Below, in pieces: positions 57,336 through 61,421 of a stretch of 64,000 nt of DNA (position 1 is its first letter; the number at the start of each line of letters is the position of its first letter). Source of the stretch: an uncultured Clostridia bacterium (GTDB lineage: Bacteria; Bacillota; Clostridia; Oscillospirales; Acutalibacteraceae). Below the pieces are notes generated by a model. That model had not been told where the DNA came from. It did not search any database and saw only the letters and a program-made list of their open reading frames with translations. Location of the stretch: positions 62,001-126,000 of the forward strand of contig CAMJJL010000001.1 in the NCBI GenBank assembly GCA_946406145.1, written 5' to 3'. A program made the position numbers and the translations under genes.

Positions 57336-58868
57336 ATGGATACTATCTTTAAATTCTTATTTGAGTTTCTAAAGCAGTTCTTCGGCTCTATTTTCAAGGG
57401 TATCGTCGAAATGCTTCAGGCTTTCAACTTCAAGGCCTACTATGATATTATTCAGAATTTCACGGGACAGGGCGAGCTCGGTAAAGGCGTCGCTTGGGTC
57501 ATCGCGATCGTCGCTATGCTCCTTCTTGCCGCTGTTCTGGGTCTGATCATCTTCTTCATCGTGAAGGGCATCATGAAATTCACGAAGTTCAAGAAGAAGG
57601 CGAAGGACACCAACGATCTTGTCAACGAGGTCAACGCGCTGAACAAAGAGGTCATGCGCCTCAATCTCGAGAAGGATAAGATCCTCTCCATGAAGGTTTC
57701 TCAGATCGGTCTGAACCCGAATGAGATCTCCGAGCTGACCGGCGAAGAGCTGGAAGCGCTCAACAAGGAAGAAGAGGAAGAGGTTTCCACCGGCCGTTTC
57801 AACAAGCTGGTCACCATCGACGAGGAGTGGGAGGATTATCAGCCCGAGCCGTACGACTGGGATGTTACCCTGCCCGAGTTTGTTACCAACTTCCGCAACT
57901 TTGCTTGCTCCAGAATGCATTATTGGTATGAGATCAAGCTGCTCCGCTGCTTTGTAGCAGGCTTTGCATCCGGTCGTTTGACGATCCTGCAAGGTATCTC
58001 TGGTACCGGTAAAACTTCACTGCCTTACGCATTCGGTAAATATGTATGCAACCCGGCTGTTATCGCTTCTGTCCAGCCTTCCTGGCGTGACCGTACCGAG
58101 CTGTTCGGCTACTACAACGAATTTACCAAGAGATATAACGAGACGGAGCTGCTCCGTGCACTGTACGAAGCTTCCTATAATGAAAATGTTTACGTCGTCA
58201 TCCTCGATGAGATGAACATCGCCCGTGTCGAGTATTACTTCGCCGAGATGCTGTCCATCCTCGAAATGCCGGCACATGATGAGTGGATCGTCGAGATCGT
58301 TGCGGCTCCCTGGCCGGACGACCCGAAGCATCTGGATCACGGTAAGCTGACAATTCCCGATAACATCTGGTACGTCGGTACCGCGAACAACGATGACTCC
58401 ACCTTTGCTATCACCGATAAGGTTTATGACCGTGCGATGCCCATCGACATCAACACCAAGGGTAAGCCCTTCGACGCTCCCGATACACCGCCGTGTCATA
58501 TCAACTATAAACACTTCACCAAGCTGCTGGAGGATGCTGTTAAGGCGAATCCCATCAGCGAGGAGAACTTGAAGAAGATCGAGATCCTCGACGATTACGT
58601 CATCGAGCACTTCCGCGTTGCTTTCGGTAACCGTGTTATGAAGCAGATCAATTCCTTCGTACCCGCGTTCGTCGGCTGCGGCGGCACAGAGGTCGACGGT
58701 ATCGACTATGCGCTGTGCAAGAAGGTATTCCGTAAGTTTGAGGCGCTGAACATTTCTTACATCCGCGACGAGATCGACGGTCTTGTCCAGCAGCTCGATC
58801 AGCTCTTCGGACGTGAGAACATGAACGAGTGTAAAGAGTATGTCCGCATGCTTCAGAAGATGACCTGA
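57336..58868 (+). CDS. membrane-anchored McrB-like AAA+ ATPase
   Basis: TM near N-terminus; Walker A LQGISGTGKTSL; Walker B VVILDEMNIARVEYYFAEML; GTANNDDSTFAITDKVYDRA sensor. Confidence 0.82.
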   Translation: MDTIFKFLFEFLKQFFGSIFKGIVEMLQAFNFKAYYDIIQNFTGQGELGKGVAWVIAIVAMLLLAAVLGLIIFFIVKGIMKFTKFKKKAKDTNDLVNEVNALNKEVMRLNLEKDKILSMKVSQIGLNPNEISELTGEELEALNKEEEEEVSTGRFNKLVTIDEEWEDYQPEPYDWDVTLPEFVTNFRNFACSRMHYWYEIKLLRCFVAGFASGRLTILQGISGTGKTSLPYAFGKYVCNPAVIASVQPSWRDRTELFGYYNEFTKRYNETELLRALYEASYNENVYVVILDEMNIARVEYYFAEMLSILEMPAHDEWIVEIVAAPWPDDPKHLDHGKLTIPDNIWYVGTANNDDSTFAITDKVYDRAMPIDINTKGKPFDAPDTPPCHINYKHFTKLLEDAVKANPISEENLKKIEILDDYVIEHFRVAFGNRVMKQINSFVPAFVGCGGTEVDGIDYALCKKVFRKFEALNISYIRDEIDGLVQQLDQLFGRENMNECKEYVRMLQKMT

Positions 58869-58877
58869 TAATACAAT

Positions 58878-58932
58878 AAGGCTCCCTTTGGTAAAGGGAG
58901 CTGTCACCGAATGGTGACTGAGGGATTGTACA
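58878..58932. repeat. REP-like palindromic repeat, compact copy
   Basis: aaggctccctttggtaaagggagctgtcaccgaatggtgactgagggattgta. Confidence 0.65.
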
Positions 58933-59003
58933 AATGAACGAGTGTGACATAGTCACACAAGATACAATATCTAATCCGACCCTGACATAAAGGAGTGAGC
59001 CCC

Positions 59004-61421
59004 ATGATTGATTATAGCAGATACTACAGAGTATACGCTGAAATGAAAGACACCCTCGATGGTGACTATGCGCGCGAGTATCTGACATCTGCTTTGGCGG
59101 ACGCCGATAAAGGCAATGATGAGCTCTCCGGTAACGCGTACAACCGTGTTATCGACATGGAATGGGTCGAGATGATCGAGGGCAAGCTGCCCTATATCGA
59201 GAAAGCGATCGATGAGCAGCGTAAGTTCATCGAAGAGTATAAGGAAGTCGACCGAATTGATAAGGTAAAGCAAGTCGGCAAGGATGCTGTCCAGCATTTG
59301 ACACAGCACGCCAACCTGATCATGGCAATCGAGGATGACGGCAGCGTTGTGCCCGAAAGATTGCTGAATACACATCGTGAGGATAGCTTTGCAACCTATG
59401 AGAATCGCTTCCTTCATACGCTGATTCATAACTGCATCATGTTCGTTGAAGCGCGTTTCCGCGCGCTGCAGGACGCTCCTAATGATTCCTCCAGTAAGCT
59501 GAACATGGAGCGTGAGATCACGATCGGTCATGAAAAGTTCGGTTTCAGCCTTGAGCACCATGCGGAGAAGCATGAGCGCGACAAGATCGACAGGGATGAA
59601 GATTTCTCCAATTTGACGGACTATGAGCGTATCGAACGTATACGCATGACGTTAGACGATTTCTGTAATACCGATCTGATCAAGTCGCTCAATGGTTGTA
59701 TCAAGGTAAAATCTCCGATCAATAAAACGAACTGCATTAAGCAGGATCCGGCGTTTAAGCAGTGCTATGACCTCTGGGTGTTCATAGAGGCATACCGCAA
59801 GACCGGTTATGTATTAGAGAAAAACGTCTTTGAAGGTCAGATGCCCGAGGACGTTCAGAAAGATATGTACGACGTCATGGCTTTCCAACATTTCGTCGCT
59901 ACCATCAACACCAACTCCGCTCTCCGTGAAAAGCTCCACGCCGAGTATGTCGCGGAGAATGAGCGCCGTGCCGCCGAGGCGAATAAGCCCGAAGAGGAAA
60001 TGGCGCGATATATCGAGGATAAGATCTATGAGGCTCGCCGTGAAGAAATGGCGCTGCGACTCAAAGAGGTTCGTGAGCGAGAGGTCATTATCGCAAAGCT
60101 GACCGCCGAGCTCGAGCAGGCAAAGGAACAGATCCGTATCCGCGATATCAAGATCAAGGAACTGGAATCCGTTATCGCCGCTCTTAAGAAAGAGCTGGAG
60201 AATCTCCGTGAAGAGCTTCGCAAGGCACAGATCCGCATTATGGATCTCGAGAAAGAGGTCGAAGAGCTCAAGGCGCGTATTGCAGAGCTTGAAGCGAAGA
60301 TCGCAGAACTCGAGGCTACTATCCGCGAGTTAGAGACGCAGATCGCGGCTCATCTTGCGACGATTGCAGCTTTGGAAGGCACCATCGCCGAGCTGCAGGA
60401 GCATATCAAGAAGCTGAACGCCGAGATCGACGGACTTAAGGCAAAAATCGAAGAGCTTAACGGCGTGATCGCCGAGCAAAAGCAGACGATCGCTGAGCGT
60501 GACGCGACGATCACTGAACAGCAGGGCGAGATCGGCAAGCTGAATACACAGGTCGGTACCCTGACGAATACGATCGGCAATCTGAGCGCGGAGAATTCCG
60601 AGCTCAAGGTAACAATCGAGGAAAATAAACGCACGATCGCCGAACAGGCTGATGATATTGCCGCCAAGGCAGCTTCCTTATCCGCCGCGAATGACGCGAA
60701 TGAGAAGCTGACCGACAAATATAACAATCTAAAAAGCGACTATGATGCCGCTGTTGATAAATATTCGAACTACCAGCGTGAGATGGATGATCTCAATCGT
60801 GTGATCGATGAAGGCAATGACGAGAAGAAAGAGCTCGAGCATCAGATCCGTGTACATCTCAACACGATCTCCGCGAAGAATGCCATCATCGCTACATTGA
60901 ATGATGAAAAGTCCGCTTTGAGCGAGCGTATCGATGGCGTCGATGCAGTCGAGCAGCAGGCGAAACGCGATATCATGGCGGCGCGTGAGCAGGTTTCCGA
61001 GATCGAAACAAAGAACGTGGCGTTGAACAATTCTCTGCGCACCCAGATTGCGGCAATGAAATTCCGTGACGATCAGATCGCGGAGCTGCAGGCGCAGCTC
61101 GAGACCGCTGAGCTGACCAAGCAGGCTGAGATCAAAGCGATTCGCGAGAAATATGAGAAGCAGATCGCTGACATCCAGTCGCAGTATGAGGTCAAGATCG
61201 ACACCCTCGAGAACGAAAAGGTTGCCGCGTGCACCTTCTCCGACGACCAGAAATATACCATCCGCCTCAACGCCGAGAAGAAGGCGATCCAGAAGGACTA
61301 CGACGTCAAGCTCGCCGACGCTACCAAAAAGGCAAAGAAGTTTGTCAAGAAAGCGCGCGTGCTTGTCGACGATAAGCCCGAAGCCCTCCTCAATCTCCCC
61401 GAGGCGAAGTATTATAAGTAA
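59004..61421 (+). CDS. DUF2357/McrC-like N-terminus fused to a very long coiled coil
   Basis: PERLLNTHREDSFATYENRFLHTLIHNC pattern; then about 450 residues of heptad repeats (AELEAKIAELEATIRELETQI...). Confidence 0.6.
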   Translation: MIDYSRYYRVYAEMKDTLDGDYAREYLTSALADADKGNDELSGNAYNRVIDMEWVEMIEGKLPYIEKAIDEQRKFIEEYKEVDRIDKVKQVGKDAVQHLTQHANLIMAIEDDGSVVPERLLNTHREDSFATYENRFLHTLIHNCIMFVEARFRALQDAPNDSSSKLNMEREITIGHEKFGFSLEHHAEKHERDKIDRDEDFSNLTDYERIERIRMTLDDFCNTDLIKSLNGCIKVKSPINKTNCIKQDPAFKQCYDLWVFIEAYRKTGYVLEKNVFEGQMPEDVQKDMYDVMAFQHFVATINTNSALREKLHAEYVAENERRAAEANKPEEEMARYIEDKIYEARREEMALRLKEVREREVIIAKLTAELEQAKEQIRIRDIKIKELESVIAALKKELENLREELRKAQIRIMDLEKEVEELKARIAELEAKIAELEATIRELETQIAAHLATIAALEGTIAELQEHIKKLNAEIDGLKAKIEELNGVIAEQKQTIAERDATITEQQGEIGKLNTQVGTLTNTIGNLSAENSELKVTIEENKRTIAEQADDIAAKAASLSAANDANEKLTDKYNNLKSDYDAAVDKYSNYQREMDDLNRVIDEGNDEKKELEHQIRVHLNTISAKNAIIATLNDEKSALSERIDGVDAVEQQAKRDIMAAREQVSEIETKNVALNNSLRTQIAAMKFRDDQIAELQAQLETAELTKQAEIKAIREKYEKQIADIQSQYEVKIDTLENEKVAACTFSDDQKYTIRLNAEKKAIQKDYDVKLADATKKAKKFVKKARVLVDDKPEALLNLPEAKYYK

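What the first reader, a model, noticed from the sequence alone, without database searches (positions are those of the whole stretch)
57336..61421. McrBC-like AAA+/coiled-coil pair embedded in a surface-filament locus
A transmembrane McrB-type AAA+ ATPase (GISGTGKT, VVILDEMN) is followed by a protein whose N-terminus resembles DUF2357/McrC partners but whose C-terminal half is a very long coiled coil. Both sit co-directionally between SipW-type secreted subunits and their signal peptidase, with no restriction methylase or nuclease genes nearby. This suggests a repurposed McrBC-like machine in envelope or filament biogenesis, or a defence module at the surface.
Basis: partly seen in the sequence, partly recalled or inferred. 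Interest (0 to 1): 0.9.

Follow-up and report, generated by a model that had tools for sequence, protein, structure and literature searches.

The report
McrBC-like machine in filament operon
Many gut Ruminococcus-type bacteria carry a membrane-bound relative of the DNA-cutting McrBC defence enzyme that has no DNA-cutting part and always sits inside the operon for a secreted surface filament, so it probably helps build that filament; one 2024 paper has named this class (CoCoPALM) but nobody has studied it.

Summary
Window 57336-58868 encodes a one-helix membrane protein with a McrB-type AAA+ domain. 58995-61421 encodes a protein with a DUF2357 (McrC N-terminal) domain, then about 460 residues of coiled coil and no nuclease. 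Both lie in a one-direction operon of SipW-type secreted subunits (about 12 genes) bracketed by two SipW-like signal peptidases. The second peptidase is beyond the window.

The linkage is not chance. In 80 named relatives the DUF2357 gene follows the ATPase wherever flank allows (75/75), and a co-directional signal peptidase is present (40/40). The 20 nearest other McrB-like ATPases have none at the same cutoff. No phage or plasmid record searched carries a full-length copy.

[quoted passage not shown] 2024 (PMC11090510) and not explored there. So it is a new member of a known, uncharacterised kind.

I add the operon anatomy: most subunits share a C-terminal W-x-x-G-x-D motif, an uncleaved subunit paralogue (56294-57238) is the likely membrane anchor, an EAL-domain gene is a frequent neighbour in other families, and the coiled-coil tail is dispensable.

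Best explanation: a nuclease-free, NTP-driven machine for filament assembly or export. Defence is less likely. The mechanism is untested.

The parts
53100..53924 (+). Subunit A: secreted/SipW-type protein (TM then TLAWF; C-terminal RIWLEGEDPEC); presumed major filament subunit
   Evidence: Family alignment A5: AWF after the TM and W-x-x-G-x-D-x-x-C invariant in 14/14 across families; present in 38/40 named loci with long flanks
54039..54830 (+). Subunit B: SipW-type protein (TFAWF; C-terminal VWLNGEDS)
55264..56208 (+). Signal peptidase 1, SipW/archaeal type (the true start is probably an internal ATG)
   Evidence: NCBIfam SipW E 2.5e-19 (below that model's own cut-off), TIGR02228 E 6.7e-16 above its cut-off
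56294..57238 (+). Protein D: cytosolic tail + single TM without the W cleavage motif + ectodomain ending in MWIEGEDPEC; presumed membrane-anchored subunit
   Evidence: Family alignment A6: W, E, G, D, C of the motif invariant in 12/12; found in 39/40 loci; conservation concentrated in the ectodomain
57336..58868 (+). TM-anchored McrB-type AAA+ NTPase (TM ~46-75, coiled coil to ~121, AAA+ ~180-490)
58881..58901 (.). Perfect palindrome between the ATPase and DUF2357 genes (GCTCCCTTTGGTAAAGGGAGC)
   Evidence: function not established
58995..61421 (+). DUF2357 (McrC N-terminal-like) protein with a long C-terminal coiled coil, no nuclease domain
   Evidence: Pfam PF09823 E 3e-7; AF2 model of aa 1-352, pLDDT 85; Foldseek ranks 1 and 3 = McrC, weak E; heptad test
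61456..62580 (+). Subunit G: SipW-type protein (YSWFSPP; RIWIEGTDNES)
62636..64000 (+). Subunit H: SipW-type protein (YAWF) with starch-binding CBM26 modules; continues past the window end to C1:127869 (L009:15870), 1077 aa
   Evidence: Pfam CBM26 E 1.6e-25, 2 stretches; VWLEGTDKDC

Best explanation
The pair is a membrane-anchored, nuclease-free McrBC-derived machine (CoCoPALM class). It works with the operon's own secretion line to build a SipW-type surface filament.

Proposed working: the ATPase forms a McrB-like ring on the cytosolic face of the membrane, held by its N-terminal transmembrane helix. The DUF2357 protein, in place of McrC, docks in the ring and stimulates NTP hydrolysis. Its long coiled coil, where present, acts as a cytosolic spacer, scaffold or partner-binding arm. 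The ring's cycles drive or gate handling of subunits that carry SipW-type signals, for example by acting on the cytosolic tail of the uncleaved subunit paralogue D. The two signal peptidases release the other subunits, which polymerise on D.

Shown here: the domain identities, absence of a recognisable nuclease in the pair, operon membership, and strict co-conservation. Inferred: the ring, the stimulation, the D-tail contact, the filament itself and the direction of work.
For: DUF2357 gene directly downstream in 75/75 named loci with enough flank; co-directional signal peptidase in 40/40; D in 39/40; A in 38/40; versus 0/20 for the nearest other McrB-like ATPases at E<=1e-5. Whole-locus synteny across the genus, with the core module persisting in other families and in Bacilli-like and Christensenellaceae MAGs. 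Among 99 relatives, every genome with subunit A but no ATPase has A at a contig end. The ATPase is the most conserved gene in the operon (median 70% identity; A 45%, DUF2357 44%, D 35%, G 27%), and NNDDST is invariant in 26/26. Family monophyletic, support 100/99, on a long stem. No full-length copy in 72,556 plasmid or 50,697 phage records. An EAL-domain gene accompanies the locus in 20 of 100 loci, all from other families or genera, fitting a regulated surface structure.
Against: Nothing shows that a filament exists: the subunits have no Pfam family and no PDB relative, and their fold was not predicted. No experiment links ATP/GTP hydrolysis to secretion or assembly. Bacillus SipW/TasA fibres are made without such an ATPase (own knowledge), so the machine is not generally required for SipW-type export. 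The close relatives in the NxD clade are predicted defence systems (PMC11090510). Synteny shows shared function, not which step.
Confidence: 0.62

Rival explanations
1. Envelope-located defence system: the McrBC-like pair senses phage at the membrane, as a nuclease-free CoCoNuT cousin, and the filament genes are either part of the barrier or bystanders.
For: The ATPase belongs to the NxD McrB branch that is rich in predicted defence systems (PMC11090510). The generic PADLOC candidate model PDC-M26A hits its AAA+ core (E 1e-34).
Against: PDC-M26A hits ordinary NxD McrBs far better (1e-48 to 1e-56), and PDC-M26B, which hits one of their partners, does not hit ours. No nuclease, HEPN or methylase was found among the proteins scanned. 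The locus is conserved in fixed order with filament genes, and full-length copies are absent from phage and plasmid collections. Genomes G048 and G030 carry separate McrBC-like pairs elsewhere, one among phage and recombinase genes.
Confidence: 0.12
2. Quality-control unfoldase/chaperone: the AAA+ ring extracts or holds back uncleaved or misfolded subunits at the membrane, protecting secretion, rather than powering assembly.
For: Membrane anchoring at the site of signal-peptide processing; fixed linkage to two signal peptidases and many divergent subunits, while the ATPase itself hardly changes.
Against: No protease or known degron partner in the locus. McrB-type rings are not known unfoldases (own knowledge).
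Confidence: 0.15
3. Localisation or cytoskeletal scaffold: the long coiled coil and the TM/coiled-coil region of the ATPase position the secretion line (pole, septum) and NTP hydrolysis switches assembly of the scaffold.
For: About 460 aa of coiled coil in the window's protein; a crescentin-rod Pfam model hits the coiled coil (2e-9, below its cut-off and at least in part a coiled-coil artefact).
Against: The tail is absent in Bacilli-like members, whose DUF2357 proteins are only 362-394 aa, while the rest of the locus is kept, so a long scaffold is not the core function.
Confidence: 0.08

Closest known systems
[quoted passage not shown] 2024 eLife, PMC11090510
   Same: NxD-type McrB-like NTPase with N-terminal TM + coiled coil, McrC homologue with coiled coil, linked to signal-peptidase family genes.
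   Different: The paper's main text gives one passage, no operon anatomy and no tested function. Here: two signal peptidases, W-motif subunits with a shared C-terminal motif, anchored paralogue D, a CBM26-bearing subunit, an EAL neighbour in other families, and members without the coiled-coil tail. FtsB homology was not seen in Pfam scans.
E. coli McrBC (Type IV restriction; PDB 6ut6, 6hz4)
   Same: AAA+ fold, Walker A/B and signature Asn; adjacent DUF2357 partner.
   Different: No ADAM/DUF3578 DNA-binding domain, a membrane anchor instead; NNDD rather than NTAD; the partner lacks a PD-(D/E)xK nuclease; filament rather than restriction context.
CoCoNuT Type IV systems (PMC11090510)
   Same: NxD McrB branch, coiled coils, partner often without an active nuclease.
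   Different: CoCoNuTs lacking the McrC nuclease are always next to HEPN or other nucleases according to the paper; none was found here.
Bacillus TasA/SipW/TapA fibre operon
   Same: Dedicated SipW-type signal peptidase and secreted fibre subunits with an aromatic residue just after the signal.
   Different: No AAA+/DUF2357 pair there (own knowledge); the subunits here match neither Pfam TasA/camelysin models nor PDB TasA chains by sequence.

Membership tests
CoCoPALM | McrB-like NTPase of the NxD signature class (often followed by D/E) | tested here: met
   NNDDST invariant in 26/26; GTANNDDSTFAITDKVYDRA has the same length and spacing as the NxDE controls GTVNMDETTFPFSKKVLDRA; gapless against McrB NTAD
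CoCoPALM | NTPase fused to an N-terminal transmembrane + coiled-coil region | tested here: met
   Hydrophobic segment at ~46-75 in the members mapped; one continuous predicted helix 52-121
CoCoPALM | That region is homologous to FtsB | tested here: inconclusive
   No FtsB/DivIC Pfam or NCBIfam hit for the ATPase; no profile-profile test was made
CoCoPALM | McrC homologue (DUF2357), usually with coiled coil | tested here: met
   Pfam E 3e-7 above gathering; Foldseek ranks 1 and 3 McrC, weak E; coiled coil in the window's protein
CoCoPALM | Linked to signal-peptidase family genes | tested here: met
   40/40 loci with long flanks against 0/20 controls at E<=1e-5; one control had a weak short hit at E<=1e-3
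CoCoPALM | Falls in the CoCoPALM clade of the published McrB tree | not tested
   The published sequences were not on hand; own tree shows one clade, 100/99
McrBC Type IV restriction | Modified-DNA-binding specificity domain on McrB | tested here: not met
   N-terminus is TM/coiled coil; no such domain in Pfam
McrBC Type IV restriction | PD-(D/E)xK nuclease on McrC | tested here: not met
   C-terminal half is coiled coil; no nuclease Pfam hit among the 25 shown; no P..D..(D/E)xK pattern in that half
CoCoNuT | Nuclease (active McrC nuclease, HEPN or other) in the system | tested here: not met
   None in the locus proteins given to Pfam; subunit K and the first half of subunit J were not scanned
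PADLOC PDC-M26 candidate defence system | Both A and B models matched | tested here: not met
   A matched only over the AAA+ core; B did not match our DUF2357 protein nor that of L071
SipW-type secreted fibre operon | SipW-like peptidase plus subunits with TM-aromatic signals | tested here: met
SipW-type secreted fibre operon | Subunits are TasA/camelysin-fold and polymerise | tested here: inconclusive
   No sequence match; fold not predicted (structure jobs spent on the pair)

The most novel reading that the evidence does not exclude
A Type IV restriction ring has been exapted as a membrane-bound NTP-driven motor for extracellular filament assembly: nuclease and DNA-recognition domains lost, McrC's activator domain kept, and filament subunits recruited as substrates. 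This would be a new class of filament-biogenesis machine, widespread in gut Bacillota.
Probability: 0.4. Interest if true: 0.85.

Novelty: new member of a known kind. Interest (0 to 1): 0.55.

Why it matters
If right, an antiviral restriction motor was turned into part of a surface-organelle assembly line, a defence-to-housekeeping switch. SipW-type filaments have no known cytosolic motor (own knowledge), so this gives a candidate with a defined, strictly conserved gene set. One subunit carries starch-binding modules, which points to substrate attachment by rumen and gut Ruminococcus relatives. It also warns defence-gene annotators: generic McrB models will label these loci as antiphage systems.

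Tried and rejected
Defence reading through PADLOC PDC-M26: rejected as generic to NxD McrBs. PDB sequence search for DUF2357: the single sequence gave nothing and the profile gave only chance hits, so the structural support rests on Foldseek ranks with weak E-values. PDB profile search of subunit A: only WD40 repeat-composition hits, not meaningful. Apparent counterexamples (subunit A without ATPase: G005, G021, G024, G025, G059) all turned out to be contig ends. A simple regex count of the signature motif over all family ORFs mis-hit some proteins and was replaced by the alignment. The viral-contig scan gave no answer twice. Crescentin, ATG16, TMF and similar Pfam hits on the coiled coil were treated as coiled-coil artefacts. 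Rfam found nothing in the locus itself, only a tRNA at 50991-51077. No paper on CoCoPALM function was found beyond the naming paper and its preprint.
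Full report
What is there. The window is C1:62001-126000 of a 2.42 Mb genome in 115 contigs. Its closest named relatives by ATPase sequence are uncultured Ruminococcus and Clostridiales MAGs, several from ruminants (97-99% identity). From 53100 onward runs a one-direction gene series that continues past the window end: subunit A (53100), subunit B (54039), signal peptidase 1 (55264), protein D (56294), ATPase (57336), DUF2357-coiled-coil protein (58995), subunits G (61456) and H (62636, CBM26), then outside the window I, J, K and signal peptidase 2, followed by housekeeping genes (radC, uvrB and topoisomerase-like genes, named from sequence by eye). 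Gaps inside the series are 34-126 bp except 433 bp before signal peptidase 1 as called, whose real start is probably an internal ATG.

The ATPase. The 510-residue protein has one clear hydrophobic segment, a helical stretch to about residue 121, a low-confidence linker and a AAA+ domain. Sequence search of the PDB returns only E. coli McrB, and Foldseek of the model ranks McrB first (E 2e-6; the model has mean pLDDT 77 and low confidence in the linker and some active-site loops). The NNDDST signature is invariant in 26 diverse members. It lines up without gaps with the NxDE motif of ordinary NxD-class McrBs (GTVNMDETT...KVLDRA).

The partner. Pfam DUF2357 matches above its gathering score. A search of 99 relatives with the Pfam model alone finds a DUF2357 protein in 41 genomes, nearly always in this locus. 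The AlphaFold2 model of residues 1-352 is good (pLDDT 85), and its Foldseek ranks 1 and 3 are the two McrC structures, with weak E-values (0.19, 0.49). The rest is coiled coil by composition and heptad test. Partner proteins in the family, with contig-cut copies left aside, range from 362 to 963 residues. Bacilli-like members have almost no tail, so the tail is an accessory and the DUF2357 core is the constant part. No nuclease signature was found.

Is the association real? Eighty named loci were fetched with an ATPase alignment. They are the best 80 of at least 560 relatives, so they are biased to closer members, but they include Oscillospiraceae, Christensenellaceae, Erysipelotrichaceae/Bacilli-labelled and other Clostridia MAGs. 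DUF2357 follows in 75/75 with flank, a signal peptidase is present in 40/40, D in 39/40, A in 38/40. Twenty loci of the nearest McrB-like ATPases outside the family have 0/20 at E<=1e-5; at the looser E<=1e-3 one short signal-peptidase-like hit appears. In 99 relatives, cases with subunit A and no ATPase all end at contig boundaries. The family is one clade with full support on a long stem (a few control rows are long branches, so the outer topology is unsure). Separate McrBC-like pairs exist in two of the same genomes, one beside phage and recombinase genes.

New anatomical points. (1) A, B, D, G, H and, less perfectly, I share a C-terminal W-[ILV]-x-G-x-D type motif; in D and A its core is invariant across families. 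(2) D looks like the uncleaved, membrane-anchored paralogue: it has a cytosolic tail and TM but no AWF, and its ectodomain is the conserved part. (3) 20 of 100 loci, all outside the window's genus, have an EAL-domain gene nearby, next to D in those mapped, suggesting c-di-GMP control. (4) The ATPase is far more conserved than the subunits it travels with, as expected of a machine serving variable cargo.

Known or new? Bell et al. [quoted passage not shown] No later paper was found in the library, which does not cover all journals. Every defining feature I could test is met except FtsB homology, which was inconclusive; placement in the published tree was not tested. I therefore file it as a new member of a known, uncharacterised kind.

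How it probably works. The favoured model is a membrane-anchored ring stimulated by its DUF2357 partner, acting on subunit handling at the membrane. Domain identity, co-conservation and absence of a recognisable nuclease are shown; the ring, stimulation, D-tail contact and filament are inferred. The main rivals are quality control and defence.

Limits. Gene calls in the related loci are mechanical. Most related genomes are MAGs. Presence of a filament is inferred from the SipW-type context only.

Noticed in passing
window 62636-64000 (gene continues to C1:127869): SipW-type subunit H carries starch-binding CBM26 modules (Pfam E 1.6e-25, two stretches), suggesting a filament or surface protein that binds starch.
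   Followed up: partly
L071, L072, L073, L075, L144, L145, L147-L149, L151, L153-L155, L159-L161, L164, L166-L168: An EAL-domain (c-di-GMP phosphodiesterase-type) gene lies near the locus, next to protein D in those mapped, outside the window's genus.
   Followed up: partly
window 58881-58901; weaker copies at 20419 and 25090: Perfect palindrome GCTCCCTTTGGTAAAGGGAGC between the two genes of the pair; 3 matches in the window with up to 3 mismatches against 0.06 expected.
   Followed up: no
L074:7473-7892, L078:12868-13221, L088:11214-11612, L224:4060-4413, L226:8688-9044: A small ORF (~115-140 aa) that looks by eye like the four-helix-bundle (23S intervening-sequence) protein family is repeatedly inserted inside the filament operon of different genomes.
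   Followed up: no
L078:7417-7839 (-) and the matching end in L083: Some DUF2357-coiled-coil proteins end in an extra globular-looking domain of about 110-140 aa with no Pfam match.
   Followed up: partly
L221:3379-8419 and L222:2710-7610: Second, separate McrBC-like pairs (1082+592 aa and 1024+614 aa) in genomes that also have the filament locus; L222 sits among phage-lysin-like and serine-recombinase-like genes.
   Followed up: partly
window 49530-51077: A tyrosine-recombinase-like integrase gene followed by a tRNA (50991-51077, minus strand) lies just upstream of the locus; it looks like the end of an integrated mobile element.
   Followed up: no
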